A model generated the notes under the pieces. That model was not told the origin of the DNA, made no database searches, and was given only the letters and a program-made list of their open reading frames with translations. Shown here in pieces: positions 6,084 to 46,472 of a DNA stretch of 64,000 nt (within the stretch, counting starts at the first letter, position 1; each line of letters begins with the position of its first letter). Both the position numbers and the translations under genes were made by a program. Location of the stretch: NCBI RefSeq assembly GCF_022758885.1, contig NZ_JALEBH010000002.1, forward strand, positions 1,239,244 through 1,303,243. Direction: 5' to 3'. This DNA is from Sphingobium sp. BYY-5 (GTDB lineage: Bacteria > Pseudomonadota > Alphaproteobacteria > Sphingomonadales > Sphingomonadaceae).

Positions 6084-6097
6084 TCTAAGGGGACGCA

Positions 6098-10281: not shown

Positions 10282-10291
10282 TCGTCAAAGG

Positions 10292-16107: not shown

Positions 16108-16134
16108 AGTCTGTCCTGATAGGGGGGATGCGCG

Positions 16135-18157: not shown

Positions 18158-18158
18158 C

Positions 18159-29994: not shown

Positions 29995-30007
29995 CGGCGT
30001 TCCGATC

Positions 30008-31165
30008 TCATACCCCTTCGGCGGGGGCGACGGTGGTCGCAACTTCCCTGACGCCGCGATAGCGTTCCTTCGCCCATCGGTTGATCGGCTCCTCAAGCCA
30101 GCGATAGGATATATAGGCAAGCGCGATCGTCACGGGCAACGATAGCAGGAGCAGGGCCAGGAAGGCGGGCTTGCTGGAAGCCAGGCCCTGGCGTTGCAGC
30201 AGGACTGCCCAACCGATCAATATGGGCAGGTGCAGAATATAGAAGCCATAGGACACCTCGCCCATGGCGACGAAGGGGCGCCAGGCCAGAATATGCCGGG
30301 CAACCGCAAAGGGGCGCCATCCGTCGAGTGTGCAGATAAGAATCGTGGCCACCCAGATGATCGGCGGCAGTGCTGAGAGAATCTCGCCCGCGCGCGCGGC
30401 GAGCAGCACGATCAGCCCGCCGATCACGAGCAACAGGTCGGGGCGATCGGCGATCCTGGGCATATGGATGGCGGTCAATATTCCGATGATGAAATAGGTA
30501 AGCGTCATCGGCAGGAAGGAAGGCACCTGGGGATAGATGTCGCCGAACAAGGCCCGTCCGAACAAGGCCAGACCTATGATCGCGCAAAAGGCGATCGGCC
30601 TGCCGCGCGGATTGGAGAGAATGGCGACGAGGAACGGCGCCACGATGTAAAATTGCACCTCAAGCGAGAGGCTCCAGGCAGGGGCGTTGAAGGCAAGGGC
30701 CGAACCATAGAGAATGCTGTCCGGAATCGCGCCATGGACCAGGAACAGATGGGCGATCAGGTGCTGACCGAACTGATCAAATTCTCCTTGGGTGCGATGG
30801 GCGATGCGGGCAATGTCGCCCGCCTCACCTCCGCCGAGCGCCGTGAGCAAGCCGGGATAATAAGCCGACGTCATCAAGCCGAGCAGAAGACCCACAAGAT
30901 AGACGGGATAGAGACGGAAGAAGCGGCGGGCAAAATATTGGCCATAGGTCGACCGGCCATTGAGGAGCGTGGTGCCGATGGCGAAGCCCGACAGGATCAT
31001 GAACACGCTGACGGCCATGCTGCCATTGGCGATGAGGCCAAGGATGCCATGGTCGGGAAAGCCGACCAGGAACAATATGTGTGTCAGATAGACCCAAAGA
31101 GCCATGAAACCGCGCAGACTGTCGAGTTCCACCAGCCTGCTAATGCTCCGCTCTGCGTTCGGCAT
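30008..31165 (-). CDS. Acyltransferase 3 family membrane protein
   Basis: Inner-membrane O-acyltransferase of OafA/ExoZ type, probably acetylating the polysaccharide. The 385 residues have about ten hydrophobic helices. Signature motifs are ELDSLRGFMALWVYLTHILF, FFRLYPVYLVGLLLGL and SLEVQFYIVAPFLVAIL. The C-terminal part includes VSYGFYILHLPILIGW. I chose the ATG at 31165 because GGAGG lies six bases upstream on the minus strand; in-frame starts further upstream lack one. It is the last gene of the exopolysaccharide locus in this window. Confidence 0.87.
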   Translation of the reverse strand: MPNAERSISRLVELDSLRGFMALWVYLTHILFLVGFPDHGILGLIANGSMAVSVFMILSGFAIGTTLLNGRSTYGQYFARRFFRLYPVYLVGLLLGLMTSAYYPGLLTALGGGEAGDIARIAHRTQGEFDQFGQHLIAHLFLVHGAIPDSILYGSALAFNAPAWSLSLEVQFYIVAPFLVAILSNPRGRPIAFCAIIGLALFGRALFGDIYPQVPSFLPMTLTYFIIGILTAIHMPRIADRPDLLLVIGGLIVLLAARAGEILSALPPIIWVATILICTLDGWRPFAVARHILAWRPFVAMGEVSYGFYILHLPILIGWAVLLQRQGLASSKPAFLALLLLSLPVTIALAYISYRWLEEPINRWAKERYRGVREVATTVAPAEGV

Positions 31166-31397
31166 CGCCCACCTCCGGATGCGTAGCTTGTTCATATCGC
31201 TATCGGAGGGGGCAGGGGGTGGCCAGCCACGCCCGCAGGCACGCACCTTGATTTGTGCACCGCCGAACAAGGGAAGGCGCTTCAATCGGGATGAACCGAT
31301 GGAAGAGCAGGGAAAGAGCTACGTACGAGAATGATGGCCTTTCTGGCGCTGGCGTTTGAGGAAGACGGGGGTTTATCGGAAACGAGCCGGGTCGGCG

Positions 31398-32738
31398 TTA
31401 GACGATCAAGCCCGGAATAATCTTGTTGGTTTCCAGGCTGCCCGTGCCCCAGCGGTCGACCGGCACGCCCATAGCCTGTTGTAGGGTCAGACCTACCCGG
31501 CTGACCGGCGTGCCATCGCCGGTGAAATATTGCCCGGTGTGGATGCGCCCGCCCGCCGATCCTGCCGTCATCATCGGGATATTGTCGATGGTGTGGAACT
31601 TGGCGAACTCGGTCTCGCTGTGGGCGAAGACCAGGCTGTTGTCGAGCAGGGTGCGGTCTCCTTCCTTCATCGCGTCCATCGCCTTGATGAAATAGGTCCA
31701 GGCTTCCATGCATTTGTTGACGTAGAAGGTCGCCTCCGGCTGGTAGCCTAGCCGATTATCCAGCACCTCCTCATGGGTCAGTTGATGATGGGTGATGGTG
31801 CTGCCGATCCGGGTCAGCGATGACGCGCCATTGTTGAAGTTCATGTTGAACAGCCGGACATTGTCGCACGCCATCGCCATGACCAGCAGATCGGTCATAA
31901 TCTGGTGATTATGCATCACATTCTCGATCTCGGCATTGACCGGCTGGTCGGGCACCTTGGGCGGCACGATGCAGGCCTGCATCGGTTCGGGCTTGGTCAG
32001 TTGCACGTCAAGCTGGTTTTCCAACTGCCGTAGCGAGGTGAAATATTGGTCCAGCCGCTGCCGGTCCGCCGCGCCCACACGCGCTTCCAGCGCCTGGCGC
32101 TGGTCCACCACGCCCGACAGCACGCTGCGCCGCGCCATCACCGCCGGATCGGGGGTGAAGGTCGCGCTGTTGGGATCGTGGAAGCCGGGGCCGAACAGCC
32201 TGGTATAGAGCGCGGCGGGCGATACTTCGGCCGGATTGAGATTGCCGTTGCCGCGCCCCGACAGCGAATTGCGCGGATCGCCGGTCGCCGACAACTCGAT
32301 CGACCGGAAGCGCGTGCGTGTGCCGATGACATCGCCGATCGATACGTCGAAGGACGGACCAGGCAAGCCTCGGTCGGATTCGATCGCGATCCCGGTGCGG
32401 ATGCCGATGCCACCGCTGATATGCGGCAGGTTGGGCTTGCCGTCCAGCGGCAGCGTGAAGTCGCCCAATATGTTGACCTTGTGCTTGAGCGCTTCGATCG
32501 GTGCCAGCTCCACCTTCAGTTCATAATCCTTGCCGGCCGCGCCGGGAAACCAGCGTGGCGGATTGACGCCCAGTCCCCAGAACCAGGTGCCGAACCGCAC
32601 CGGCATTGGCGCGCCGGTCGCGGCCATCGCCGTGCCGTTGCCGTCGAGGAAGATGTCGAGCAACGGCAGGCCCACGGCGACGGCCATGCCGTTGACCATG
32701 CCGCGCAGCGCGCTGCGGCGATTGAAGGGGAAGCTCAT
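31398..32738 (-). CDS. DUF1552 family Tat-exported protein
   Basis: Role unknown. The 446 residues begin with a Tat signal (NRRSALRGMVNGMAVAVGLP) and show DUF1552 hallmarks: RFGTWFWGLGVNPPRWFPG, SIGDVIGTRTRFRSIELS, FNMNFNNGASSLTRIG and LVFAHSETEFAKFHTIDNIP. The DUF1552 family is typically encoded beside DUF1592/DUF1588 proteins in planctomycetes, myxobacteria and some proteobacteria, as here. It overlaps the DUF1592-type gene by ATGA and is the last gene of a seven-gene operon of redox proteins. A periplasmic role with the c-heme partner is inferred. Its HxxTH-like and HSE segments might bind metal, but that is not established. Confidence 0.85.
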   Translation of the reverse strand: MSFPFNRRSALRGMVNGMAVAVGLPLLDIFLDGNGTAMAATGAPMPVRFGTWFWGLGVNPPRWFPGAAGKDYELKVELAPIEALKHKVNILGDFTLPLDGKPNLPHISGGIGIRTGIAIESDRGLPGPSFDVSIGDVIGTRTRFRSIELSATGDPRNSLSGRGNGNLNPAEVSPAALYTRLFGPGFHDPNSATFTPDPAVMARRSVLSGVVDQRQALEARVGAADRQRLDQYFTSLRQLENQLDVQLTKPEPMQACIVPPKVPDQPVNAEIENVMHNHQIMTDLLVMAMACDNVRLFNMNFNNGASSLTRIGSTITHHQLTHEEVLDNRLGYQPEATFYVNKCMEAWTYFIKAMDAMKEGDRTLLDNSLVFAHSETEFAKFHTIDNIPMMTAGSAGGRIHTGQYFTGDGTPVSRVGLTLQQAMGVPVDRWGTGSLETNKIIPGLIV

Positions 32739-34450
32739 GGCTGATCTCCTGATCGGATATGGGGGCTGGTCATCATCGCCACCTGCGGCTTGGGCAGCGG
32801 CGTCATGGGCACGCGATAGGCTTCGGCCATGGTCGCCACCTGCAGGAACAGCGCCTGGATGCGATATCCGTTGGCGGCAAAGCCCTGCTCGATCGCCATT
32901 GCGGTTGCGTCTTCATCCGCTGGCGTCCGGCCGGTCGCATATTGGAAGGCGCGGCCCGCGACGCATTCGGTGGTTGACTTGCTGGCCGCCAGCGCCTTGC
33001 CCAGGCCGACATTGCCCTGGAAGGCTGTACCCTCAAACACGCCCGCCGTATCGATCGGCGCGCCATTTTCCTGCCCGCGGAAGGCGCCAATGCCGTCGAA
33101 CCGTTCCAGCGGCAGGCCCAGCGGGTCGGTGATCTTGTGGCAAGCGGCGCAGACCGGGTCGCTGTTATGCGCGTTCAGGCGGATGCGCGCGGTCGGCATC
33201 GCCTTGTTGGTGACGTCCTGCACCGCGGTGAAATTGACGTTGCCGGGTGGATTGGGCACCGGCTGGCACAGCAATAGCTCACGGATCGCACGACCGCGCA
33301 GCGTCGGCGAGCTGCGCCCGGAATGGGAATAGAGCGCCAGGAATCCCGCCTGCCCCAGCAGGCCGGCACGGTCGTCGCCTTCGGCAAACTCATAGGGCAC
33401 CCAGCCTTGGCTGCTGGCGACTTTCGTCTGGTAGAGCGGCCCCAATGCCCGGTTGATGAAGGTGTGCCGGGTCGTGAACAACAGGCGATAATCGCCCTGC
33501 CGCGTCACCAACTGGTCGACGATCATGCGTAGCATTTGTTCGGATAGGGCGGACGCCACGTCGGGGTTGAAGCGGGGGTAGACGATCTGGTCCTTGGCCA
33601 TCTCGTCGAATTTCTCGAACAGCAGCATGTCGGCGAAGAAGGCGCGAACGCCATCCTCCAGCCGGGTCGACCGGACCATGCGCTGGGCGATTGCCGACAG
33701 TTCGGCCGGATCGGTCAGCTTGCCCTCATCCGCCGCGCGCAGCAGCGCCTCGCCCGGCGTGGTGTTCCACAGCAGGAAGCTCAGCCGCGCGGCGCGGGAG
33801 TAATTGTCCAGCCGCATCTCGCCGGGCGCTTGCGGATCCGGCTCGGCGCTTTCGATGATGTAGAGGAATTGCGGCGACACCAGCATGGCCGCCAACGCCA
33901 GTTGCAGCCCGTCATAGAAGCTCTGATCCTGTCCAACGCCCTTGCCCGCCATCATGACGAAGGCGGCGATTTCCTGCTGCGTCATCGGCCGGCGGAACAG
34001 GTAGCGGCCGATCGGCACCAGCGTGCGCGCGGCGCAATCCGCATCGGGTGCGGCGGCACTGCGCGGGGCGCAGGGAATGAATTGCGCGCGTCGATCCTCC
34101 GCGACAATCTGCGCCGCGATGTTGCGCGCCATCGCGTCGAACTGTTCAAGGCCCGCCGGTGAGATGGTCGACACGCTCGCCCCGGTGGCGATCAGTTCAT
34201 GGACTGGCCGCACGATCGGTTCGAAGCGTCCGGCAACCTTGATGTCTGGACCGAAGATATCGGCGACGCTGTTGCGATATTGCGCCTCGGTCAGGCGGCG
34301 CATCCCGACCACTTGCCCCAGCGGCGCTTGCAAGGATGTGAGATTATGGTCCGGCGATGCGGTCTGCGGCACCTTCTCGGTGGTGCAGGCGGCCAGCGTC
34401 AGGCCGGCGAGCAGCGCCCAATATGGGCATCTGGTGACTATCCCGCTCAT
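32735..34450 (-). CDS. DUF1592/DUF1588-type c-heme lipoprotein
   Basis: A predicted periplasmic lipoprotein of 571 residues with signal YWALLAGLTLAACTTE, cleavage before Cys. The N-terminal part has RRLTEAQYRNSVADIFG (DUF1587-like). The middle has RYLFRRPMTQQEIAAF and SFLLWNTTPGEALL (DUF1592-like). The C-terminal part has HSGRSSPTLRGRAIRELLL and then the heme motif CAACH (residues 434-438) within the conserved DPLGLPLERFDGIGAFR block (DUF1588/1585). A covalent c-type heme is therefore likely. It overlaps the genes on both sides by four bases. Function of the family is unknown; partnership with DUF1552 is a known genomic pattern. Confidence 0.87.
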   Translation of the reverse strand: MSGIVTRCPYWALLAGLTLAACTTEKVPQTASPDHNLTSLQAPLGQVVGMRRLTEAQYRNSVADIFGPDIKVAGRFEPIVRPVHELIATGASVSTISPAGLEQFDAMARNIAAQIVAEDRRAQFIPCAPRSAAAPDADCAARTLVPIGRYLFRRPMTQQEIAAFVMMAGKGVGQDQSFYDGLQLALAAMLVSPQFLYIIESAEPDPQAPGEMRLDNYSRAARLSFLLWNTTPGEALLRAADEGKLTDPAELSAIAQRMVRSTRLEDGVRAFFADMLLFEKFDEMAKDQIVYPRFNPDVASALSEQMLRMIVDQLVTRQGDYRLLFTTRHTFINRALGPLYQTKVASSQGWVPYEFAEGDDRAGLLGQAGFLALYSHSGRSSPTLRGRAIRELLLCQPVPNPPGNVNFTAVQDVTNKAMPTARIRLNAHNSDPVCAACHKITDPLGLPLERFDGIGAFRGQENGAPIDTAGVFEGTAFQGNVGLGKALAASKSTTECVAGRAFQYATGRTPADEDATAMAIEQGFAANGYRIQALFLQVATMAEAYRVPMTPLPKPQVAMMTSPHIRSGDQP

Positions 34451-35637
34451 CGCTGCGCCACCTTTGCTTCGGGCAGCCGGTCGTTGATGAAGGCGGGCAC
34501 CGCCTCTGCTTCGATCCCGCTCGAAATGCGGCGGCACTGGCCGGTCGCGGGATCGCGATCGCCATCGGCCATCGCCTTCAACGCGGCATACATGGCGGCG
34601 CAGTCATAGCCCGCCGTCGTCGCTGCGCCCTCACCCCCAACCGAGGCGCTGGCCATCACGTTCCAGATAGGCTGATAGCCGCCGACAATCCCTTTCAGCG
34701 ACCCGTCCGGCTGAAATTCCAGGCGCAGCCGCGCCCTGGTGAAATCATATTCGTTGCGCCGCCCGCGAATGTCGCGCTCCGACCCCTGTCCCCAATTCTG
34801 CTTCAGCCGGATATGGGCAGGCTCGGTGGTCAGCACGCCGTTGCGGATGCTGCCCTTCAGCAGGTTGCGATGATCGGGATTGGCAGTGACCGTATAGCTG
34901 GCGCCGCGAATGAAATTCTGCCGCGAATCCACCACCGCGCGATCCTCGCTATTGGCGTAGATCACGGTCACGTCGGGATCGTCGACCAGACTGTCGACCC
35001 CGGTCAGCAACAGCACCTGGCTATGTTCGCCGCTAATCAGGAACTGGGTAAGGCCGCGCACGATGTCACCGCCCATGCCGTCCACCCCGCGCCAGGTCCG
35101 CACGCAGCCCATGGCCCGCCACATCTGGTTGTCGATGCCCTTTTCTCCCGTCGGGCCATCGAAATTGGTGTGGCGACAGGTGTCCGCTTCGCTGTCGCCA
35201 TCGCCCGTTTCATCGTCCAGATTCAGCCCCTTGGCGATCTTGCCCTGCACCATGCGCTGGGGCGGGCGATCGAACTTGTCGGGATGGGTGCAGATGTTGA
35301 TATTGTCCGGGCCGAAAGCATAGCCATGCCAGCGTGCGGTTAATTCCTTCTCGTTGGATTTTTCCAGCAACCGCGCCCGCTCGCCGACCGGTTGGGTTTG
35401 CAGGTAATTTTCACGCAGGGTTGCGGCCAGCCCCTCTGGGCAATCTTCCTTGCCCTGGTAGATGGCGGGCGCGAAATGGGTGAAGACGAAGCCCATCTCG
35501 CCATTGGCTGGTGGCGCGGGCAGGGCGGCGGTTGCCACCTGTTTCGTAACGTCCCCGCCCTGCGCAGCGACCGGTGCCGCAGTCAATGCCGGCAGGGCGA
35601 TGGCGGCGACCCATGACAGCTTTCTCCGCATGTTCAT
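34447..35637 (-). CDS. Exported protein of unknown function in redox operon
   Basis: I do not recognise a family. The 396 residues start with a signal peptide (MNMRRKLSWVAAIALPAL to PVAAQ). Notable segments are FTHFAPAIYQGKEDCPEG, ARWHGYAFGPDNINICTHPD, DTCRHTNFDGPTGEKGIDNQ and AMGCVRTW, which supply Cys and His that could bind metal or form disulfides. A C-terminal DCAAMYAALKAMAD and CRRISSGIEAE follow. There is no CxxCH. The ATG at 35637 has AAGGAGAAGAGAGG just upstream. It lies 19 bases after the COG4315-like gene and overlaps the c-heme lipoprotein gene by four bases, so all are one transcript. Confidence 0.75.
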   Translation of the reverse strand: MNMRRKLSWVAAIALPALTAAPVAAQGGDVTKQVATAALPAPPANGEMGFVFTHFAPAIYQGKEDCPEGLAATLRENYLQTQPVGERARLLEKSNEKELTARWHGYAFGPDNINICTHPDKFDRPPQRMVQGKIAKGLNLDDETGDGDSEADTCRHTNFDGPTGEKGIDNQMWRAMGCVRTWRGVDGMGGDIVRGLTQFLISGEHSQVLLLTGVDSLVDDPDVTVIYANSEDRAVVDSRQNFIRGASYTVTANPDHRNLLKGSIRNGVLTTEPAHIRLKQNWGQGSERDIRGRRNEYDFTRARLRLEFQPDGSLKGIVGGYQPIWNVMASASVGGEGAATTAGYDCAAMYAALKAMADGDRDPATGQCRRISSGIEAEAVPAFINDRLPEAKVAQR

Positions 35638-35656
35638 CCTCTCTTCTCCTTGACCG

Positions 35657-36448
35657 TCAGGGCGTAAGTGGCAGCGCATCGGTGGGAATGTCCGCCGGAT
35701 CGGCACCGTCGATCACGTAGACCGGCCGATCGCGATACACCCATTGCGCTCGCTCCTCGTCCTGGCGCACGCTCCATTGGCCTGTGCCACGACGCACCAG
35801 CCCGGCGGGAAAGGCGCGCCATTGTGCACAGGTAGCGCCGCAGTGCGCAGCCCTGGGGCTGACCAGCAGGTCGCCCTGTCCGTCGACCAGCAGATAGCGT
35901 CCCTCCACCAGGCGCGGCGCGACATTTGCGGGCGCGGTGATCCTGGGCAGGGGCGGCACATATTTCAGGCTGTTCCAGGTGAGGCCGTCCTCACCGTCAT
36001 GCGCCGCCGATCCCGGCTGTTCGCCAATGCGGGTGAAGACGAGGTTCACGCCCTTAAAGACCCATTGCGGTCCTTTCGGTCCCTGCATGACGACCCAGTC
36101 GCCGTTCGGTTTGGACGCGTCCGCCGCAGATTTTTCACCGCCGAACTGGGGTGGGAGCGGTACGACCATGGCTTTGGCTGGCGCCATCAGTGGTTCCCAT
36201 TGTGTCAGGCAATCACCCGAACACCATAGGGCTTGACGCCCGGTCCGGCCGGTGACGGCACGCATATCCATGCCATAAAGCGTGCGCCCATGGGCATCGA
36301 CATAGACGCTTCTTGATCCCGCCTGCTTCACACTCACGCCGGGGGGCAGGGGATCGCCGCTCGCTGCCTCCAACGGCAAATCCGCAGCCTGCGCCCATAG
36401 TTCGGCAGGCTGGACCAGCATCAGGATGGCGATGGCGTGCCGGATCAT
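35657..36448 (-). CDS. Exported protein with COG4315-like secreted repeats
   Basis: A 263-residue exported protein with signal IRHAIAILMLVQPAELWAQ. Two copies of a repeat are visible. The first (about 47-130) has VYVDAHGRTLYGMD, ALWCSGDCLTQWEPL and WVFKGVNLVF. The second (about 180-250) has LLVDGQGDLLVSP, HCGATCAQWRAFP and QWVYRDRPVYV. This is the pattern of the secreted repeat family of unknown function (COG4315, pfam03640). Each repeat has a Cys pair (CSGDC, CGATC) that could form a disulfide. The start overlaps the cytochrome c' stop as TGATG. Confidence 0.78.
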   Translation of the reverse strand: MIRHAIAILMLVQPAELWAQAADLPLEAASGDPLPPGVSVKQAGSRSVYVDAHGRTLYGMDMRAVTGRTGRQALWCSGDCLTQWEPLMAPAKAMVVPLPPQFGGEKSAADASKPNGDWVVMQGPKGPQWVFKGVNLVFTRIGEQPGSAAHDGEDGLTWNSLKYVPPLPRITAPANVAPRLVEGRYLLVDGQGDLLVSPRAAHCGATCAQWRAFPAGLVRRGTGQWSVRQDEERAQWVYRDRPVYVIDGADPADIPTDALPLTP

Positions 36449-36915
36449 CAGCGCCGCTCCTCGACGCGGAAGCTGCGATGGCAGGTGCCACAGCTTTGCC
36501 CCAGCGCTTTGGCCGCTAGCCGCATCCGCGCGATGTCGCCGCTCTGCGCCATGGTGGCGAAGGTGTTGGCCTGCGCCGCGAAGCCGTCCTGCGCCGCCTT
36601 GAACGCGGCGGCCTGGCTCCAGATTTCCGCCTTGGCCGCGGTCTTCACGCCCGGTCTGGGACCGCTGCCCGCCGGGAACCAGCCTTGCTGCTGGCGCGCA
36701 TAGTCGCGGATCTGGCGTGCCGAGATCTGGATGACATAGGTTTGTGGCGTGGTCGATTTCAGTTCGTCATTGATGTTCTTGAACGCCGCCCCGACCTCGC
36801 GGAAGCCGGCGATGCGGGTTGCGATGATATCGCCGGGGGCCGCTGCCAGCGGTGTCGCGCATAAGGCGGCCAGCAGGGTGAACAGGGCGGTCGGGCGCCG
36901 GGCGTCGCTTTTCAT
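36448..36915 (-). CDS. Cytochrome c' (class II c-type cytochrome)
   Basis: A periplasmic heme protein of 155 residues. The signal peptide is LFTLLAALCATPLAAA. The mature protein is a four-helix bundle with the C-terminal heme motif CGTCHRSFR, the class II position. The N-terminal helix RIAGFREVGAAFKNINDEL fits family sequences such as those starting with a methionine or similar axial residue. A ribosome binding site GGAAGGG precedes the start. It lies 21 bases after the cytochrome b561 gene. It may carry electrons or bind NO; in this operon an electron carrier role is inferred. Confidence 0.88.
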   Translation of the reverse strand: MKSDARRPTALFTLLAALCATPLAAAPGDIIATRIAGFREVGAAFKNINDELKSTTPQTYVIQISARQIRDYARQQQGWFPAGSGPRPGVKTAAKAEIWSQAAAFKAAQDGFAAQANTFATMAQSGDIARMRLAAKALGQSCGTCHRSFRVEERR

Positions 36916-36936
36916 GTCATCCCTTCCTTTCCAGTT

Positions 36937-37593
36937 TCAGAGCATCGGGTCGGCGAAGACCCACCAGGCGATCACGCCCGACAGGGTGACGGCGATCAGG
37001 AAAGTGACCGCCCTGGCGCGTCGTACAGGCACGACCGCCTCGCTCGCGACAGCCGTTCGGCCGGTCAGCATCGCCCCGATCAGGTTGCGTCGCCGCGCCA
37101 GCAGGTAGAAAAGCACCGCCGCCACATGCAATCCGATCAGGATTTGCAGGATGGTGAAGCTGGTCGCGTGGATCGCGGCAGCCAGCCGCCCTTGGTCGAA
37201 ATCGACCAGATGCGACAGCGGCCCGGATTCGATCCCGTCAATGTCGACCGCGAACAGACCGGTGCCGAGTTGCACCATCAGCAGCAGCAGCATCGCGATC
37301 ACGCTCCATCCGCCCAGCGGATTATGGCCGACCGGCGCGACCCCGCCCGCCAGATAGGCGCGGATGGCGCGTGGACCCTTCAGGAGATAGGCAAAGCGCG
37401 CTGATCCCGAGCCGACAAAGCCCCAGATCAGGCGAAAGACGACCAGGAACAGCACGGCCTGGCCCGACCAGCGATGCCAGTCCATATGATAGGTTTCCGC
37501 GCTCCACCAGGAAAAGCCCAGCAACGCCACCAGCAGCCAGTGAAACAGGCGGATCGGCAGGTCCCAGACGAATTGACGGGCGTCACTTATCAT
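36937..37593 (-). CDS. Cytochrome b561-type membrane protein
   Basis: A 218-residue inner-membrane diheme b cytochrome. The start VWDLPIRLFHWLLVALLGF (His18) is the hallmark of the bacterial b561/hydrogenase-type family. Further ligand candidates are His36/His40 in YHMDWHRWSGQ and His in AIHATSFTILQILIGLHVA. Four main helices are seen, plus one C-terminal helix (AVTFLIAVTLSGVIAWWVF). It would link the quinone pool with periplasmic carriers. It starts four bases after the HiPIP stop and precedes cytochrome c'. Confidence 0.88.
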   Translation of the reverse strand: MISDARQFVWDLPIRLFHWLLVALLGFSWWSAETYHMDWHRWSGQAVLFLVVFRLIWGFVGSGSARFAYLLKGPRAIRAYLAGGVAPVGHNPLGGWSVIAMLLLLMVQLGTGLFAVDIDGIESGPLSHLVDFDQGRLAAAIHATSFTILQILIGLHVAAVLFYLLARRRNLIGAMLTGRTAVASEAVVPVRRARAVTFLIAVTLSGVIAWWVFADPML

Positions 37594-37597
37594 CGGT

Positions 37598-37909
37598 TCA
37601 GCCCTTCTTCGCCCAGGAATCGCACAGCCCTTCGGCCGGGACGATCCCGCCGCTCAGCAGTGCGCATTTGCCGCAACCGGGCTGGGCGGCGGTGAAGAAT
37701 GCGCAGACGCTACAGCGCTTGGCTGCATCGGCCGACGGCGCCCGGAACCCCAGCGACTTGCGCATACTCTTCTGCGCGGCGGACAGGCTTGCGGGATCGA
37801 CGCATTCGGCGGCATTACCGATCCCCGTAAAGCCGATCGGCAGCATCGCCAGCAAGGTCAGCGCCGACCGGCGGGTCCAGACATGATCTTGATGTTTCGC
37901 TGCCGGCAC
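37598..37909 (-). CDS. High-potential iron-sulfur protein (HiPIP)
   Basis: A small periplasmic electron carrier with a 4Fe-4S cluster. It has a Tat-type leader (WTRRSALTLLAMLPIGFTG). The four cluster cysteines are in RCSVCAFF, GCGKCALL and EGLCDSW, matching the HiPIP spacing C-x2-C ... C ... C, with an additional Cys before the third. With the GTG start at 37909 it has 103 residues; GAAGAGGAG lies about nine bases upstream of it. An upstream extension without leader features is rejected. It is the first gene of the seven-gene operon and is divergent from the response regulator. Confidence 0.85.
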   Translation of the reverse strand: MPAAKHQDHVWTRRSALTLLAMLPIGFTGIGNAAECVDPASLSAAQKSMRKSLGFRAPSADAAKRCSVCAFFTAAQPGCGKCALLSGGIVPAEGLCDSWAKKG

Positions 37910-37990
37910 GCGGGCCGCTCCTCTTCCCTGTTGGCCCGGTCTACCCGGCCGTCTTCTTGCCCCGGCTATAGCAGCGGCTCGTCGGTTTAA

Positions 37991-38053
37991 TTTGTCAGCG
38001 CCGACAAAATTGGCGCAGAATAATTCCGCGCTTTGTGTCCGGTTTGACAAAAT
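37991..38053. promoter_or_regulatory. Candidate operator region in the divergent HiPIP/response-regulator promoter
   Basis: TTTGTC-agcgcc-GACAAA (37991-38008) is a 6-bp dyad. The octamer GACAAAAT occurs at 38003-38010 and again at 38046-38053, 43 bases apart (about four helix turns). OmpR-type regulators often bind direct repeats, so autoregulation and control of the redox operon are plausible. Purely pattern-based. Confidence 0.3.
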
Positions 38054-38090
38054 CCAGCGGAGGGCGACCGCTAGAAAGGGCGCAGAACGG

Positions 38091-38849
38091 ATGAAGGAGA
38101 GGCAGGTGGCGGCCATGGCGGCGGAGGCGATCGATGCGTCGGAACAGACCCATATCCTGATCGTCGACGACGATCCTTCGCTGCGCACTCTGGTCCGCGC
38201 CTTTCTGACACAGGAAGGTTATGTCGTGGCGGAGGCGGAGGATGCCACGGCGCTGCGCCGGCTGCTCGACCGGCAGCGGGTCGACATCCTGATCCTCGAC
38301 GTGATGATGCCGGGCGAGGACGGGCTTTCGATTGCCCGTTCACTCGCCGGGAAACAGGACATCGGCATCATCATGGTCTCTGCTCTGGGGACCGAGGGCG
38401 ACCGGATCACGGGTCTGGAAATGGGGGCAGACGACTATCTGCCCAAACCCGTGTCGCCGCGCGAACTGCTTGCCCGTGTTCGCGCACTTCAACGCCGTCG
38501 TCGCTCTGCTGCCGAAACGCGCCTGGCATCGATGACTCATTATCATTTCGAGGGGTGGAGGCTCGATCCGGTACGGCGCGTGCTGCGCGATCCGGCCGGG
38601 ATCATCATCAGCCTGTCGGAGGGGGAGTTTGCCCTGCTGCTCGCCTTCATCGAGCATCCTCAGAAGATATTGACCCGCGACCATTTGGTGGAACTCGCGC
38701 GCGGTGTCGACGCCGATGTGTTCGATCGGGCGATTGATACCCAGGTCAGCCGGCTGCGGCGCAAGCTGGGAACCCGCGCCGGGGGCGACTTGATCCAGAC
38801 GGTACGCAGTGAAGGCTATATCTTTCAGGCTGCGGTGCGGCGCGGATGA
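38091..38849 (+). CDS. OmpR-family response regulator
   Basis: A cytoplasmic two-component regulator of 252 residues. The receiver has ILIVDDDPS, the phospho-acceptor Asp70 in DILILDVMMPGEDG, the Ser switch in MVSALGTEGDR, and Lys in DYLPKPVSPREL. The C-terminal winged helix has LSEGEFALLLAFIEHPQKIL, TQVSRLRRKLG and VRSEGYIF. The ATG at 38091 is used; a second in-frame ATG at 38115 is equally possible. The stop overlaps the kinase start by ATGA. It is divergent from the HiPIP operon, which is its most likely target. Confidence 0.93.
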   Translation: MKERQVAAMAAEAIDASEQTHILIVDDDPSLRTLVRAFLTQEGYVVAEAEDATALRRLLDRQRVDILILDVMMPGEDGLSIARSLAGKQDIGIIMVSALGTEGDRITGLEMGADDYLPKPVSPRELLARVRALQRRRRSAAETRLASMTHYHFEGWRLDPVRRVLRDPAGIIISLSEGEFALLLAFIEHPQKILTRDHLVELARGVDADVFDRAIDTQVSRLRRKLGTRAGGDLIQTVRSEGYIFQAAVRRG

Positions 38850-40180
38850 AGGCGCGCTTCCTGCGCTGGGCCAATTCGATCCACGCCCATCTATTGGCGC
38901 TTACCCTGGTCGTCATCCTGACTCTCACGGCTTTCAGCCTTTTCTTGCTATTATCCCTTATCCCACCCGAACGGGTGCCGGTGTCTGTCTATGAGATCGC
39001 CCGCATCTTGAAGAAACAGCCGCTGCTGCGCGAAATCCCCGTGGTGCATGAAAAGCGTCAGGCGGCCGCGCCCCTCCCGCCGACCGACCCGGCCGAACGG
39101 TTGATATCGGCACTGCTCGCGCGCCAATTGACCCTGCGGGCCGATGATGTCCGCGTCCGGCTCGATCCGGGCGATCGCGAACGGCTTGGCCAGTTTTTGC
39201 AGGAAATGCAGCTTTATGGCTCCGACGAGGCGGCTGACCCTTTCATCCTGGGCACCTTCACCGCTGCGGTTCGCCAGCGCTCGGGCGAATGGCGGCTGGT
39301 GACGCGTGAGGCGCGCGGCGGCCAGTCGCTTTGGCGGCTGTTCGGGCAGAATGCCTTCCTCCTGGGCCTGTTGCTCGTGATCCCGCTCAGCCTATGGTTC
39401 AGCGTCCGCCTGTCCCGCCCGATCCGAGCCTTCGCTGCTTCGGCGGAACGGCTGGGGGCAGGGATTGAGGAACAGCCCATCCCGGTTGAGGGACCAAGCG
39501 AAATCCGGATGGCTGCCCAGTCTCTCAACGAGATGCAGTCGCGCATCGCCCGCTATGTGCGGGAGCGGACTTCGGTGGTGGGTGCGATCGCGCATGACCT
39601 GCGCACGCCACTTTCCCGCCTGCACTTCCACCTTGCCAGCGCACCGGCGTCGGTCCGGATGGCGGCGGAGGATGAAATCCGTCAGATGGAACAGTTGATA
39701 GGTACGACGCTTGATTTCGTCGATAATGAAAGCCGGCCGCGATCAATGGACCCGCTCGATTTGGGGTTGCTGGTGGAAGGCCTGGTTGACGACTTCGCCG
39801 ACATGGGTCGCGATGTGGTCATGACAAAGGGTGAATCGATCACGATCATAGGTGATATGCTTCTATTGAAGCGGCTCTTCACCAACCTGTTCGACAATGC
39901 GATCAAATATGGCGATCGCGCTTGGGTTACTGTCCAGCGCATCGATGATATGGCGATTGTGGACGTGATGGACGATGGGCCGGGCATGATGGACGAGCAA
40001 ATCGCCCGCGCCTTCGAGCCCTTCTATCGCGGGGAGCCTTCACGCAATCGCAGCACCGGGGGGGTAGGTCTGGGCCTTTCGATCGTCCAGTCGGCGGTAC
40101 AGGCGCATGATGGCATGATCGCCCTGACTTCTTCGGTTGGCGGAGGCTTGCGCGTCCGAGTGCAATTGCCGATTTTATAG
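38846..40180 (+). CDS. EnvZ-type sensor histidine kinase
   Basis: An inner-membrane sensor of 444 residues. Helix 1 (LLALTLVVILTLTAFSLFLL, about 16-36) and helix 2 (NAFLLGLLLVIPLSLWFSV, about 170-190) enclose a periplasmic sensor region of about 130 residues with no recognised ligand motif. A HAMP segment follows (LSRPIRAFAASAERLG). The dimerisation helix has the phospho-His in GAIAHDLRTPLSRLHFHL. ATP-binding boxes are NLFDNAIKYG (N), VMDDGPGM (G1), FEPFYRGE (F) and GVGLGLSIVQ (G2). All catalytic motifs are intact. Translationally coupled to the response regulator. Confidence 0.93.
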   Translation: MKARFLRWANSIHAHLLALTLVVILTLTAFSLFLLLSLIPPERVPVSVYEIARILKKQPLLREIPVVHEKRQAAAPLPPTDPAERLISALLARQLTLRADDVRVRLDPGDRERLGQFLQEMQLYGSDEAADPFILGTFTAAVRQRSGEWRLVTREARGGQSLWRLFGQNAFLLGLLLVIPLSLWFSVRLSRPIRAFAASAERLGAGIEEQPIPVEGPSEIRMAAQSLNEMQSRIARYVRERTSVVGAIAHDLRTPLSRLHFHLASAPASVRMAAEDEIRQMEQLIGTTLDFVDNESRPRSMDPLDLGLLVEGLVDDFADMGRDVVMTKGESITIIGDMLLLKRLFTNLFDNAIKYGDRAWVTVQRIDDMAIVDVMDDGPGMMDEQIARAFEPFYRGEPSRNRSTGGVGLGLSIVQSAVQAHDGMIALTSSVGGGLRVRVQLPIL

Positions 40181-40250
40181 GGTGAAGGCTGTACGTCGCC
40201 TCGGTGGAGACCAACGGTTCACTGTCTTGGGTCGGCGTCCCCCGTTGGCC

Positions 40251-40281
40251 GGCGGCGGGTCACAAGGCTGGGCCCGCCGCC
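40251..40281. terminator. GC-rich hairpin between convergent kinase and TBDR genes
   Basis: GGCGGCGGG (40251-40259) pairs with CCCGCCGCC (40273-40281) over nine bases with a 13-base loop. It lies in the 123-base gap between two convergent genes. No T-run follows on either strand, so it is a stem-loop of probable terminator function rather than a classical intrinsic terminator. Confidence 0.45.
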
Positions 40282-40303
40282 GCCATCATTGCCGAAGGGA
40301 AGG

Positions 40304-43300
40304 TCAGTAATTGACCTTCACGCCGACGCGGAAATAGCGACCCAATATGCCTTCGCCACCCTGTACCGGGTTATAGGCATGGGCGCCGTAGGTGATGGTG
40401 TCGATCGGCGGCAACCGGTCAAACATGTTCAACATATTGGCATAGAATGTGAAGTTGTCGTTCACTTTGACCTGCGCATTCAGGTCGAAGGTGACATAAT
40501 TTTTCACCTTGCAGGGCAACGAGCCGTCATCCAGCCCGCAATCCTTGTAGTCGGTGCCCTGGTCCATGGCCGAAAGATCATAGCCGCCGAAGAAATTGAC
40601 CGTGTTGCTGATCGCGAACTTACCGAAATCCAGCGTGTTGAGCCAGCTACCATGCCATTTGGGCGTGCCCGAACCCGCCGTCAGGTTGAAGTTGCCGAGC
40701 GTGCCGTCATAGCGCTCCACCGTGCCATCTGGGAATTTGGTTTCCAGCCTGAGGATATAGCTGGCTTCCAGCGAACTGGTCCAACGGATGCCGTCGGTGA
40801 TCCCGATATCGGCGTTGGCGGCGAAGTCCAGGCCTTCCGACTTGATCGTATTGGCATTGATGAAGCCCGACTGCACGAAGGCGACACGCGGCGTTCTGGT
40901 ATCACCCGGAGCGATCGGCACGTCTTCAATGACGTTATAGCCTTCGGGGATCGGCTGGCCTGCATAATAGGCGATCAGTGCAGGGGCATTGTTCGCTGTC
41001 GTGATGGCGCCCGTCTTCTTGATATTATAATAATCTACCGAGAAGGACAGGCCGCGCATCGGTTCGACCAGGATACCGGCGGTGAAGCTGCGCGATTTTT
41101 CCGGCTTCAAATTCTGGTTGGCGAGAGAGGTCTGCCCATAGGTGCCGTTCCGAATATAGGCCGGACAGGTGCTGAACGTGGCTACCGTGCAGCCATATTG
41201 CGCCAGATACTGGTCGTTGAATGCGCTTGCTGTATTGCTGACGAAGCCCGTTGTCGGGAAAGTCGCGTTGGCTTCGCCGAAGCTGGGGATGCGGAAGCCG
41301 CGCGAATAGGTGCCACGCAGTACAACCTGCTCGATCGGTTTTACTTTCACGCCGACCTTCGGCGAGAAATTATCGATACCACCGGAATAGCGGTCATAGC
41401 GGCCCGACGCATTGATTTCGAGTTGTTCGAAGATTGGCGCATTCAGTTCCGCATAGGCCGAATAGACGCGACGGTCGCCCTTCACGGCAAAGCCGTTCAG
41501 GCGATAATAGCGTTCGGTCCCGCCGTTGATGTCGGAATTGATACTGGGGGAGTCGATCGCTTCATAGCGAAACGACACCCCCAGGCCGAGCTGCAAGGGG
41601 CCGCCCGGCAACTCCATCAGGCTGCCGCTGACAACCGCCTGCGCCTGAACCATGTCCGATGTCGACGTCGATGTCGCGGTCGGCATCAGATAATCCAGCG
41701 TCGCCTGGCTGTTGGCCGCCGGATTGACGAAGTTGAAGCTGCCGTCGGCGATTACGTCCAGCAGGTGCTGGATATAGACATAGCCGTCCGACTTGCGGCG
41801 CAGGTCCATGTGCATGGCCGTCGCATTGACGTCATAGGTCCAATTGTCATTGATCGGTCCCTTGATGCCGATCGCACCGCGATAGGCGCGGGTGCGCGAT
41901 TCATCATGCTCGATCGAGTTGGGCAGGCGACCGATGATCGCGGCATTCTGTCCCTGCGCGGCATAGGGATTGTTCGGGTTCAGCGTGCCGTTCGCCGCAG
42001 TGCAGGCCACGGTCGTACCGCGCGGGCAGACATAGACCGGCAGTTGCAGGATGTTATTGTTACCATAGTAGGCGACGTTGCCCGACGTGCTGTAGCGCGG
42101 GAAGTAGAAGGGCGCCGGCGCATTGGCGCGGATCGTGCTCGGCAGGCCGTCATAGGCGACCTTGGTCTGCAGGAAGTTGAATTCCGCATAGGCTTCGCTG
42201 CTATCGCCCACGCGGGCGGTGAAGCGGCCCGAGAAGCCATAGCGTTCGATATCCGGGTTGATGACGCCGTAATTGTTGGTGATATCTTCCTGACACACGG
42301 TAGAAGGCGCCGTCGGATTGTCGGCCAATTCATCGGCTGTCAGAGTATAGGGGTTGCTCCGGTTGCAGCCCGCCGTCGGATTGAGCATTTGATAGGCGCC
42401 ACTCTGCGTGCCGTCTGACGCAGCAGCGGGACGGACGAAGAAGGTGCTGCCCGTATTCGTTACGACTGGGCTGAAACCCGGATAGGCGCCATTCCCATCC
42501 AGTCCATCGACGATATTGTTCGGACCGCATGTACCGTCATGGCAAATGCGGCGATAATCGTCCGTGTTGAAGGGATAGGGACGCTGGCTGTTCTTCAACT
42601 GCTTGCTGTTGTAATAGAAGCCGCTGACATAGGCGTTATAGCCGTTATCCTGCAGATCGCCGGTGCCGGCCGTCAGCGACAGGCGATATTGCGACCCGTC
42701 ACCCCGGCTGGATATGCCCGTTTCGGCGCGACCGGCAATACCCTTGAAATTCTTCTTGGTGATGATGTTGACCACGCCCGCGATCGCATCTGCGCCATAG
42801 CTGGACGAAGCGCCGTCCCGCAAAACTTCGACATGATCGACGATATCGTCGGGAATGGTGTTGAGATCGACGAAATTGCGGGTGCCGTCATCCGAAAGCG
42901 GATAATAGGCCGCGCGCATACCGTCGAACAGCACCAGCGTCGAATTGGTGGACAGGCCGCGCAGCGAAACGGCGGACGCGCCGCCCGCAAAGGCGCCATT
43001 GGCCGAAAAACTGTTGGTGAGGGCCGGGCCATTATTGGAGGCCAGACGCTGCAACCCGTCTTGGATCGTGCTGACGCCGCGCTTGTCGAGATTTTCGGTG
43101 CTGACGACGGTGACAGGAGACGGGGTTTCCGTATTGGTCCGGCTCAGGATCGATCCGGTGACGATGATCGTGGCGCCTTCGTCGGCTGCCTGCGGCGACG
43201 CTGTCGTGGTGGATGTCTGTCCCTGGGCGAACGCAGGCGCCGCTATCAGCGCCAGGCCAAGGATGGCGGGCGCGGAGCCCGCACGCAATGATGCAGCGAT

Positions 43301-43315
43301 GGAAATTTTCTTCAC
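40304..43315 (-). CDS. TonB-dependent receptor, large
   Basis: A 1003-residue outer-membrane receptor. The signal peptide (PAILGLALIAAPAFAQ) is followed by a TonB box-like ATIIVTGSILSRTNTETPSP, a plug with VSLRGLSTNSTLVLFDGMR, GASSSYGADAIAGVVNIITK, and a long barrel ending in GILGRYFRVGVKVNY with the usual terminal aromatic residue. The plug style (VSLRGL ... LVLFDG) is close to the receptor at 59989. It stands alone: the upstream 535 bases hold no gene on this strand and the downstream gene is convergent. The substrate cannot be told from sequence. Confidence 0.93.
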   Translation of the reverse strand: MKKISIAASLRAGSAPAILGLALIAAPAFAQGQTSTTTASPQAADEGATIIVTGSILSRTNTETPSPVTVVSTENLDKRGVSTIQDGLQRLASNNGPALTNSFSANGAFAGGASAVSLRGLSTNSTLVLFDGMRAAYYPLSDDGTRNFVDLNTIPDDIVDHVEVLRDGASSSYGADAIAGVVNIITKKNFKGIAGRAETGISSRGDGSQYRLSLTAGTGDLQDNGYNAYVSGFYYNSKQLKNSQRPYPFNTDDYRRICHDGTCGPNNIVDGLDGNGAYPGFSPVVTNTGSTFFVRPAAASDGTQSGAYQMLNPTAGCNRSNPYTLTADELADNPTAPSTVCQEDITNNYGVINPDIERYGFSGRFTARVGDSSEAYAEFNFLQTKVAYDGLPSTIRANAPAPFYFPRYSTSGNVAYYGNNNILQLPVYVCPRGTTVACTAANGTLNPNNPYAAQGQNAAIIGRLPNSIEHDESRTRAYRGAIGIKGPINDNWTYDVNATAMHMDLRRKSDGYVYIQHLLDVIADGSFNFVNPAANSQATLDYLMPTATSTSTSDMVQAQAVVSGSLMELPGGPLQLGLGVSFRYEAIDSPSINSDINGGTERYYRLNGFAVKGDRRVYSAYAELNAPIFEQLEINASGRYDRYSGGIDNFSPKVGVKVKPIEQVVLRGTYSRGFRIPSFGEANATFPTTGFVSNTASAFNDQYLAQYGCTVATFSTCPAYIRNGTYGQTSLANQNLKPEKSRSFTAGILVEPMRGLSFSVDYYNIKKTGAITTANNAPALIAYYAGQPIPEGYNVIEDVPIAPGDTRTPRVAFVQSGFINANTIKSEGLDFAANADIGITDGIRWTSSLEASYILRLETKFPDGTVERYDGTLGNFNLTAGSGTPKWHGSWLNTLDFGKFAISNTVNFFGGYDLSAMDQGTDYKDCGLDDGSLPCKVKNYVTFDLNAQVKVNDNFTFYANMLNMFDRLPPIDTITYGAHAYNPVQGGEGILGRYFRVGVKVNY

Positions 43316-43850
43316 GGTTCAATCCCTTTCCCGATCGGCAGCTTTCTGCCCGATTGATGCCTACGCACCATGGAAGTGTGTTTGGTGAGGGATTGGTGCG
43401 CCTCCTTGGTGCGGGCTGTAAAGCGGGCCAACTTTCCAAGATTACAATTAATTTCCGTCCGTTACATTGTTACCACACTGTTGCGATAGTGAAATATTCA
43501 AGCAATATCGCGGCTTTGCGGGCGCGGAGTGCGGCCAATCGTTTCCCTGTTGCGATCGATGGATTTCATGAATTTTCGGTAACATGAGCCGCTGCTAAAA
43601 ATCTTGCACCGGGTCTGCATGATCATAGTCGGCACTATATGATCGTAGCATTGTAACTTTCTGTAATGGAACGTTGCCGGCGACCTCGCTCATTCCGATC
43701 ATGATGGTGTCGCGTTCGTATCGATCCGATTAGCAGGCGATCATCCAGAATGAGTGCGGCCGCGTGGATGTCATGCCACAGGAATGTGATAACATTACAA
43801 TATCGTAATTTGCGTCGATCCGACCATTCCCTGTAGCTGAAGTCTGACCC
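43316..43850. other. Divergent intergenic region between TBDR and zinc-uptake genes
   Basis: I see no gene in these 535 bases. They are less GC-rich than the surrounding genes, with many short A/T runs, and must hold the promoter of the leftward receptor and of the rightward small protein/receptor pair. The dyad at 43781-43798 is the only structured site I can support. Confidence 0.5.
43781..43798. promoter_or_regulatory. Zur-like operator upstream of the zinc receptor pair
   Basis: GGAATGTGATAACATTAC is an 18-bp dyad with seven of nine matching pairs. Its reverse complement contains GTAATGTTAT, which resembles the ATGTTATA core of proteobacterial Zur boxes. It lies about 50 bases before the small Cys/His protein gene and about 515 before the ZnuD-like receptor. 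Site identity is inferred from pattern and gene context. Confidence 0.5.
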
Positions 43851-44246
43851 TTGTTCGGAATCTGCAATTTGAGACTATTGGATCGCTCCAATTTTAAGGG
43901 AAGTCGGACCAGCATCCTGGCGATAGTCATCGCCCTGATCCTGCTTGTCTCGAATATATTGGCGATCCAGGTCCATCGCGAGATCGGCCATGATGCTTCG
44001 TCGCAAAGCGCCGCCGGCCGTTTGCATCAGCCATCTCTTGCTAGCGTGGCGACCAGCCATTGCCTGTTGTGCGACCCGGCTACGCAAGTTGATCCGCTTC
44101 TGCCGCATCTGGCGGAACCGGTTGGCTCCCGATCATCCGCATCGGTCCGGCAAGACAATGTTCCGATCGAGCGGACCGATGTCGTGCCGGTCAGTCATGC
44201 CTGGCGTAGCCGCGCACCACCTGCGGAAAGTCCTCGCACGGCCTGA
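43851..44246 (+). CDS. Small exported Cys/His-containing protein, DUF2946-like
   Basis: A 131-residue protein with one N-terminal hydrophobic segment (SILAIVIALILLVSNILAI, about 21-39). This is followed by HREIGHDAS, HCLLCDPATQ and a proline-rich C-terminus SRAPPAESPRT. The short leader, CxxC and terminal RAPPA resemble DUF2946-like proteins found beside metal-related receptors. The TTG start at 43851 is uncertain; other in-frame TTG codons follow at 43869 and 43878. A role in metal binding in the periplasm is inferred. It lies between the Zur-like box and the ZnuD-like receptor. Confidence 0.55.
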   Translation: MFGICNLRLLDRSNFKGSRTSILAIVIALILLVSNILAIQVHREIGHDASSQSAAGRLHQPSLASVATSHCLLCDPATQVDPLLPHLAEPVGSRSSASVRQDNVPIERTDVVPVSHAWRSRAPPAESPRTA

Positions 44247-44314
44247 CACCCGCTATGTGGGTATGGAGCCTGTGCGGGTGGTTGGACAGATATCCCCTAT
44301 CCCCGGAGTGTTTC

Positions 44315-46321: not shown

Positions 46322-46338
46322 CCTTGCGGTTGTCGTTC

Positions 46339-46367
46339 GGCCTGGATGTTCTGTGGACATCCGGGCC
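46339..46367 (+). terminator. Hairpin after the ZnuD-like gene
   Basis: GGCCTGGATGT (46339-46349) pairs with ACATCCGGGCC (46357-46367) over eleven positions with one wobble and a seven-base loop. It starts 17 bases after the receptor stop. No T-run follows, so termination strength is uncertain. Confidence 0.45.
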
Positions 46368-46472
46368 GGTCATCTCACTCAAAAAAGTGGGATCAAGTTT
46401 CATCATGCGGGATTGACGAAGAGGGGAATCGCATTCATGTAAATAAAACAAATGAAATGGGGGAGGATTCGC

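What the first reader, a model, noticed from the sequence alone, without database searches (positions are those of the whole stretch)
31398..40180. Seven-gene periplasmic redox operon of unknown function under a dedicated two-component system
In transcription order the operon has HiPIP, cytochrome b561, cytochrome c', a COG4315-like repeat protein, an unknown exported protein, a c-heme DUF1592/1588 lipoprotein and a DUF1552 Tat protein. Gaps are four to 21 bases and four junctions overlap or nearly touch. A response regulator and a histidine kinase are divergent from it. Every product is exported or membrane-bound, and five have visible redox or metal-type motifs. I know of no described pathway with this set. 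A quinone-to-periplasm electron chain serving a DUF1552/DUF1592 oxidase or oxygenase is my inference.
Basis: partly seen in the sequence, partly recalled or inferred. Interest (0 to 1): 0.78.

Follow-up and report, generated by a model that had tools for sequence, protein, structure and literature searches.

The report
Unknown periplasmic redox operon, widely conserved core
Seven neighbouring genes in a sphingomonad, next to their own two-component regulator, encode an uncharacterised set of exported redox proteins; three of the genes travel together across several bacterial phyla, and what the set acts on is unknown.

Summary
HiPIP, b561, cytochrome c', a COG4315-like protein, an unnamed exported protein (here UNK396), a DUF1592/1588 c-heme lipoprotein and a Tat-type DUF1552 protein lie in tight order (31398-37909, minus strand), divergent from an OmpR-type regulator and EnvZ-type kinase (38091-40180). 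All nine genes are together in 10 distinct sphingomonad genomes, window included. A palindrome, TTTGTC-N6-GACA, sits in the divergent gap of 11 of 11 distinct operons. The core is larger than the finding says: UNK396, DUF1592 and DUF1552 lie within 6 kb in 45 of 46 uncut neighbourhoods, from Sphingomonadales to Gammaproteobacteria, Myxococcota, Acidobacteria and Marinimicrobia bins. UNK396 has no Pfam hit and no significant fold match. The DUF1552 model resembles sulfatases and alkaline phosphatases, with a fully conserved Ser/Thr and His/Asp set, so 'oxidase or oxygenase' is not supported for it. Likeliest reading: a periplasmic complex that oxidises an unknown substrate and passes electrons through HiPIP or cytochrome c' to b561 and quinone; this is inference. 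It is a variant of the planctomycete-type cytochrome (PSCyt3) gene clusters, whose function is unknown.

The parts
37598..37909 (-). HiPIP, GTG start, Tat-type signal, 103 aa; six conserved Cys (36, 66, 69, 79, 82, 96)
   Evidence: PF01355 31.6 bits; each of the six Cys in 34 of 34 rows; only HiPIP hit in this genome
36937..37593 (-). cytochrome b561, 218 aa; His 18, 40, 142, 156
   Evidence: PF01292; these His in 20-21 of 21 rows, the missing one being a gap
36448..36915 (-). cytochrome c', 155 aa, C-terminal CxxCH
   Evidence: PF01322; CxxCH 29 of 29 rows, no Met at 90% or more
35657..36448 (-). exported COG4315-like protein, two CxxxC/W repeats, 263 aa
   Evidence: no Pfam hit; CxxxC pairs in 27 and 26 of 27 rows
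34447..35637 (-). UNK396: unnamed exported protein, 396 aa, core partner
   Evidence: no Pfam or NCBIfam family; alignment A1; model pLDDT 83 with no significant PDB or viral match
32735..34450 (-). c-heme lipoprotein DUF1587-1595-1592-1588-1585 (PSD3-PSD5-PSD4-PSCyt3-PSD2)
   Evidence: CxxCH, His377, His429 and Cys128/140/396/497 in 42 of 42 rows (numbered from 34453)
31398..32738 (-). DUF1552 (HXXSHH) Tat-type protein, 446 aa; alkaline-phosphatase-superfamily-like fold
   Evidence: PF07586; model pLDDT 87; Foldseek best 6.7e-6, sulfatases; conserved Ser/Thr108, His318, His322, His382
38091..38849 (+). OmpR-family response regulator (start 38091 or later)
   Evidence: 3 and 4 were run from 38094
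38846..40180 (+). EnvZ-like sensor histidine kinase, no Cys
37991..38008 (.). TTTGTC-N6-GACA palindrome in the divergent gap, probable operator of the regulator
   Evidence: present in 13 of 13 operons examined, 11 distinct; 7 hits in 1,295,064 bases elsewhere
38036..38051 (-). second copy of the motif

Best explanation
A regulated periplasmic redox complex. Shown: nine co-conserved genes, a conserved operator-like palindrome, and a triad of UNK396, a c-heme protein (DUF1592) and a Tat-type DUF1552 protein with a predicted sulfatase/alkaline-phosphatase-like fold that is tied together across phyla. Inferred: the lipoprotein holds DUF1552 and UNK396 at a membrane; DUF1552 binds metal and an anionic or ester substrate; the complex oxidises that substrate (or a product of its hydrolysis), and the c-heme of DUF1592 passes electrons to HiPIP and cytochrome c', and from there to cytochrome b561 and the quinone pool. 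UNK396 and the COG4315-like protein would be binding or assembly partners. The kinase senses an unknown periplasmic signal and the regulator switches the operon from the TTTGTC-N6-GACA site.
For: Synteny of all nine genes. Triad within 6 kb in 45 of 46 uncut neighbourhoods and 67 of 80 in all. UNK396 in 7 and DUF1552 in 15 of 296 order genomes, all 7 within the 15. HiPIP, cytochrome c' or b561 in 28 of 46 uncut neighbourhoods (19, 24 and 12 one by one); a further cytochrome c family (one member scanned, two Cytochrom_C stretches) at 10 of 94 loci. The sister operon type, DUF1592-DUF1552-ankyrin, carries cytochrome c'-b561 in 3 of 8 loci examined, one of them in this very genome. Fold and conserved residues of DUF1552. 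Operator.
Against: No recognised dehydrogenase cofactor (flavin, PQQ, molybdenum) is encoded in the operon, so the catalytic step is unexplained. A phosphatase-like fold argues for hydrolysis rather than oxidation. TM-scores over the query are 0.34-0.41 for the eight best matches and 0.21-0.41 over the 50 listed, and profile comparison with 18 sulfatases found nothing. 18 of 46 uncut neighbourhoods show none of HiPIP, cytochrome c' or b561; among the 27 more distant ones (L052 onward) only 10 show any, though 26 have the triad. No expression data. I lowered this from 0.45 to 0.42 on recounting, because of the 10 of 27.
Confidence: 0.42

Rival explanations
1. A hydrolase-centred nutrient system: DUF1552 is a working phosphatase, sulfatase or transferase, and the heme and iron-sulfur proteins serve its maturation or a later oxidation of the product.
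For: Fold match to sulfatases, LtaS, phosphoglycerate mutase and alkaline phosphatase; Ser/Thr108 at the start of a predicted helix and invariant His/Asp; TonB receptor family of the neighbour at 15 of 94 loci, no background measured.
Against: Constant pairing with a c-heme protein in both operon types is not needed for a hydrolase; no profile similarity to sulfatases.
Confidence: 0.22
2. One reading: quinol gives electrons through b561 and HiPIP or cytochrome c' to the DUF1592/DUF1552 complex, which activates oxygen or reduces a substrate.
For: b561 proteins can work from quinol (recalled); in a Novosphingobium locus oxygenase and F420 genes lie nearby.
Against: The 50 listed fold matches of DUF1552 include no oxygenase; redox potentials are unknown.
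Confidence: 0.18
3. An envelope stress or nitric-oxide response: cytochrome c' binds NO and the kinase senses redox damage.
For: Cytochrome c' without a conserved Met, so perhaps five-coordinate; dedicated two-component pair; a planctomycete DUF1552 gene (RB9955) is in the table of genes induced by heat, cold and salt together in PMC2754498 (passages).
Against: 22 of 46 uncut neighbourhoods lack cytochrome c' and 40 of 46 lack the regulator-kinase pair as scored by the window's profiles; the kinase has no Cys and a single non-invariant His in its sensor. Raised from 0.10 to 0.12 on recounting.
Confidence: 0.12

Closest known systems
PSCyt3/PSD2-5 (DUF1592/1588) genes next to an unknown family in Verrucomicrobia and Planctomycetes
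   Same: Same five Pfam domains in one exported c-heme protein. PMC5615132 (passages) says PSCyt2 and PSCyt3 genes usually sit next to each of two unknown families and that nothing is known of their functions. That the PSCyt3 partner is DUF1552 is my inference: the main text held does not name it, though the search counted DUF1552 three times in the full record.
   Different: Here a shorter protein without PSCyt1, with UNK396 and a diverged DUF1552 subfamily, and with HiPIP, b561, cytochrome c' and a two-component pair.
DUF1592-DUF1552-ankyrin-cytochrome c'-b561 operon (second copy in this genome, L113)
   Same: Same heme protein family, DUF1552, cytochrome c' and b561; a regulator/kinase pair within a few kb.
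   Different: Ankyrin protein in place of UNK396 and COG4315-like; DUF1552 matches PF07586 at 239-352 bits against 152-178 for the UNK396-linked ones in the order sample.
DUF1800-DUF1501 gene pair
   Same: A conserved pair of unknown function with a Tat-type member; canonical DUF1552 and DUF1501 profiles look related (89% probability, E 2.6e-7; the window's own subfamily only 2.7%). Pair described in PMC5122149 (passages).
   Different: Different partner family; the passages read mention no heme protein in that pair.
Alkaline-phosphatase/sulfatase superfamily
   Same: Predicted fold and candidate nucleophile and metal ligands of DUF1552.
   Different: No detectable profile similarity to sulfatases; a c-heme partner is not a feature of that superfamily (recalled).

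Membership tests
DUF1592/PSCyt3 multi-domain family | five Pfam domains over their gathering scores | tested here: met
DUF1592/PSCyt3 multi-domain family | c-type heme motif CxxCH | tested here: met
   42 of 42 rows
DUF1552 (PF07586) | Pfam gathering score | tested here: met
   167.8 against 30 bits
Alkaline-phosphatase superfamily (DUF1552) | fold | tested here: met
   Foldseek PDB: 8 matches at E <= 0.001, all sulfatases or LtaS/LtaP; the 50 listed of 183 are all of this superfamily by my recall; TM-scores low, 0.21-0.41. A predicted model only
Alkaline-phosphatase superfamily (DUF1552) | Ser/Thr nucleophile and His/Asp metal ligands | tested here: inconclusive
   conserved in 40 of 40 rows, but their place in the site is not shown
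Alkaline-phosphatase superfamily (DUF1552) | profile similarity to sulfatases | tested here: not met
   0% probability against 18 sulfatases; DUF1501 against the same 18 also gives 0%, so the test is insensitive
Alkaline-phosphatase superfamily (DUF1552) | ester hydrolysis or transfer | not testable with these tools
   -
HiPIP | Pfam score and four Fe-S Cys | tested here: met
   which four of the six Cys bind the cluster is not shown
Cytochrome c' | Pfam score and C-terminal CxxCH | tested here: met
Cytochrome c' | five-coordinate heme | not testable with these tools
   no conserved Met in 29 rows is suggestive
COG4315 / PF03640 repeat lipoproteins | Pfam or NCBIfam score | tested here: not met
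   no Pfam hit, NCBIfam SCO0930 15.5 of 275 bits

The most novel reading that the evidence does not exclude
An unrecognised class of respiration-linked periplasmic metalloenzyme in which an alkaline-phosphatase-fold protein works with a c-heme protein and a new-fold partner (UNK396), present in several phyla in many copies and adapted to different substrates, each copy wired to whatever carriers (HiPIP, cytochrome c', other cytochrome c, b561) the host has.
Probability: 0.3. Interest if true: 0.85.

Novelty: new variant of a known kind. Interest (0 to 1): 0.62.

Why it matters
The planctomycete-type cytochrome domains are frequent in environmental genomes and their function was stated as unknown in the paper read (PMC5615132, passages). 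This locus reduces the problem to a three-protein core with a small, regulated operon in cultivable sphingomonads, where deletion, heme spectra and substrate screens are feasible. It also links an alkaline-phosphatase-like fold to a c-heme protein and defines a protein family with no Pfam hit and a predicted fold without a significant PDB match.

Tried and rejected
Oxidase/oxygenase reading of DUF1552: dropped after the fold search. Metal or thiol sensing by the kinase: its sensor has no Cys and its only His (68) is not invariant in 11 sequences. A regulon beyond the operon: 12 motif matches at 10 places in the genome, counting overlapping matches of one palindrome as one or two, of which the three at C2:1277234-1277294 are this gap; two of the others were looked at, one inside an ORF and one LacI-operator-like beside a LacI-type gene (my reading of the translations); the rest were not looked at. 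Structured RNA: none at gathering score in 30000-44000. Promoter/terminator scan: 4 and 7 sites against shuffle means of 1.7 and 6.1; not used. Literature: searches for the DUF names, Pfam accessions, PSCyt terms, COG4315 and carrier/genus terms showed no functional study among the papers listed; most were seen as listings only, passages were read in five papers, one search listed 10 of 483, and only open-licence papers are held, so this is not proof of absence. TonB receptors as part of the unit: neighbour's family at 15 of 94 loci and in 8 of 46 uncut 6-kb neighbourhoods, no background measured; left open. On recounting I found that the motif background (28 hits) had included loci fetched for the motif; one search replaces it.
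Full report
OBSERVATION. In transcription order on the minus strand: HiPIP (37598-37909, GTG start chosen by me from the upstream purine-rich stretch), b561 (36937-37593), cytochrome c' (36448-36915), a COG4315-like protein (35657-36448), UNK396 (34447-35637), DUF1592 lipoprotein (32735-34450; I passed 34453 to several tools, which adds one codon), DUF1552 (31398-32738). Three junctions overlap by 1, 4 and 4 bases and three have gaps of 4, 21 and 19 (read). The regulator and kinase run the other way and overlap by 4 bases.

CONSERVATION IN RELATIVES. UNK396 is found in 11 of 41 genomes (own, 24 same-genus and 16 order genomes); besides the own one, the matches fall in two classes, 77-86% identity in 6 genomes and 28-37% in 4. 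All 6 close ones hold all nine genes in the same order. A scan of one genome per species found 164 relatives, of which the best 80 were kept as named loci. All nine genes lie within 6 kb in 5 of these 80, of which L030 and L031 have the contig lengths of two genomes already counted, so distinct genomes with the full set are the window, L016-L021, L032, L033 and L034, ten in all. In L035 (Sphingobium boeckii) no b561 was detected, and L036 (S. sufflavum) has a rearranged set. In an even sample of 296 order genomes 7 have UNK396, so the system is patchy. DUF1552 is found in 15 of 296 in what appears to be the same sample (same size and handles); all 7 lie within the 15. By my own arithmetic the chance of that without linkage is about 2e-10, ignoring relatedness and the fact that one of the 7 is this genome.

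THE CORE. Same-strand blocks of the three genes occur somewhere in the locus in 67 of 80. The COG4315-like family is near in 54 of 80 (37 of 46 uncut). Record titles name Sphingobium, Sphingomonas, Novosphingobium, Caulobacteraceae, Rhodospirillaceae, Gammaproteobacteria including Steroidobacter and Peristeroidobacter, Myxococcota, Acidobacteria and Marinimicrobia; most beyond sphingomonads are metagenome bins, so their taxonomy is only as good as the bins. HiPIP, cytochrome c' or b561 lie near in 28 of 46 uncut neighbourhoods (19, 24 and 12). Split by distance, among the 27 uncut loci from L052 on (mostly not sphingomonads) 26 have the triad but only 10 have any of these carriers, which counts against a fixed electron path. 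I did not measure a background with the same profiles, but this genome has a single HiPIP.

TWO OPERON TYPES. This genome has a second DUF1552, in a DUF1592-DUF1552-ankyrin-cytochrome c'-b561 operon with a regulator and kinase a few kb away. Of 8 other order genomes with the higher-scoring DUF1552 I fetched seven (G047 was not fetched); ankyrin follows DUF1552 in five (L128-L132) and cytochrome c'-b561 follow in two (L128, L129); L133 and L134 show neither, L133 being cut about 0.5 kb after DUF1552. With the own copy that is ankyrin in 6 of 8 and cytochrome c'-b561 in 3 of 8. In one search the nine UNK396-linked DUF1552 score 152-178 bits against PF07586 and the nine others 239-352 (a further partial match of 21.5 bits with a stop was left out), so the two types carry separate DUF1552 subfamilies. 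The recurrence of cytochrome c'-b561 with both is the best hint of an electron path to quinone.

PROTEINS. DUF1552: 40-row alignment, model pLDDT 87 and pTM 0.84. Foldseek against PDB: best E 6.7e-6, eight at or below 0.001, all sulfatases or lipoteichoic acid synthases; the other 42 of the 50 listed (183 in all at E <= 10) are, by recall of their superfamily, also alkaline-phosphatase-like. As a control, the UNK396 model run the same way gave no match below 0.029. Conserved in 40 of 40 rows: His106, Ser/Thr108, Asp131, His318, His322, Asp327, His382, and Asp/Glu at 375; residue 108 starts a predicted helix. Against this: TM-scores over the query are 0.34-0.41 for the eight and 0.21-0.41 over the 50, and profile-profile comparison with 18 sulfatases finds nothing; DUF1501 against the same sulfatases also finds nothing, so that test is insensitive. 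The window's subfamily matches canonical DUF1552 at 100%; canonical DUF1552 against 17 DUF1501 proteins gives 89%, the window's subfamily against them 2.7%. I hold the fold as likely (about 0.8) and activity as open.

DUF1592 protein: CxxCH, His377, His429 and four further Cys in 42 of 42 rows; the residue three after the heme His is Thr in 29 and Met in 12 of 42. A lipobox pattern was seen in 20 of 42 rows, so lipid anchoring is not shown to be general. UNK396: model pLDDT 83; conserved Gly/Asp/Asn motifs and some Cys, but no heme or iron-sulfur motif that I recognise. It is more likely a binding or structural partner than a redox protein (inference). HiPIP has six conserved Cys, two more than the cluster needs. 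Cytochrome c' keeps CxxCH but no Met. b561 keeps four His (rows above a bit-score cut, some from closely related strains).

REGULATION. TTTGTC-N6-GACA lies in the divergent gap of 13 of 13 operons examined, 11 of them distinct; in the other loci L022-L109 it occurs 7 times in 1,295,064 bases, palindromes counted on both strands, so by my arithmetic a gap of 200-800 bases would hold one by chance in about 0.1-0.4% of cases. In the window there are two copies, 37991-38008 and 38036-38051. OmpR-type proteins usually bind direct repeats (recalled), so a palindrome is a little unusual. The kinase sensor region (41-165) is less conserved (0.71) than HAMP and HisKA (0.87-0.90), with no Cys.

FUNCTION. 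Committed reading: respiration-linked oxidation by the triad, with electrons leaving by HiPIP/cytochrome c' and b561 (0.42). Weakest point: no known two-electron cofactor is encoded. The hydrolase reading (0.22) fits the fold better but not the constant heme partner. Substrate hints are too varied to use: acyl-CoA dehydrogenases near L022, catabolic and F420 genes near L042, glycosidase-like and cyclase-type genes near L025/L028, flavin enzymes near L084 and L096.

LITERATURE. No paper held contains both DUF1592 and DUF1552; four contain at least one of six such names. PMC5615132 (passages) reports that PSCyt2 and PSCyt3 genes usually neighbour two unknown families, that function is unknown, and that some carry carbohydrate-binding modules. 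PMC6004670 (passage) lists a CBM2-DUF1592 protein, closest to Cellvibrio, in a lignocellulose-degrading community. PMC2754498 (passages) lists a DUF1552 gene of Rhodopirellula (RB9955) among genes induced by heat, cold and salt alike, a point for the stress reading. PMC7789669 (passage) only lists the domains. PMC5122149 (passages) describes the DUF1501-DUF1800 pair.

VERDICT. A real, conserved, uncharacterised system; observation confirmed, interpretation partly supported, and the deeper finding is the three-gene core with a new protein family.

Noticed in passing
L113 (own genome C2:1138000-1157000), 6094-12483: A second, sister operon DUF1592-DUF1552-ankyrin-cytochrome c'-b561 in the same genome, beside purine-type genes (adenosine deaminase, purine nucleoside permease, amidohydrolase).
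   Followed up: partly
L042:1-7133 and 15612-20199: In a Novosphingobium bin the triad sits between coenzyme F420 biosynthesis genes (CofH-type radical SAM, CofD, F420 ligase, CofC), an F420-type NADP oxidoreductase, a luciferase-like monooxygenase, and a Rieske oxygenase, sulfotransferase and SnoaL-like gene; L050 and L053 look alike by their starts but were not scanned.
   Followed up: partly
window 53120-56357: A TonB receptor appears split over two overlapping frames (53120-54004 with STN and carboxypeptidase-like domains, 53907-56357 with the barrel).
   Followed up: no
window 56421-58064: PhoD-like phosphatase downstream of the split TonB receptor.
   Followed up: no
window 40304-49397: Three TonB receptors in the stretch next to the kinase gene.
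   Followed up: no
L061, L064, L065: Two triads face away from each other around a gene of a CHRD-type family (one member scanned) in alphaproteobacterial bins; that family is at 7 of 94 loci.
   Followed up: no
L025:12068-12598 and 12 further loci: A small exported glyoxalase-fold (VOC) protein family (one member scanned) occurs at 13 of 94 loci, next to DUF1552 on its downstream side in seven (L025, L028, L029, L043, L050, L051, L053).
   Followed up: partly
L096:11070-12377: In an Acidobacteria bin a Tat-type flavin amine-oxidase-like gene follows UNK396; L088 has a gene of the same length in that place.
   Followed up: no
L022:10115-14033: A Tn3-type transposase and resolvase lie next to a triad with cytochrome c' and b561, in keeping with the patchy spread.
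   Followed up: no
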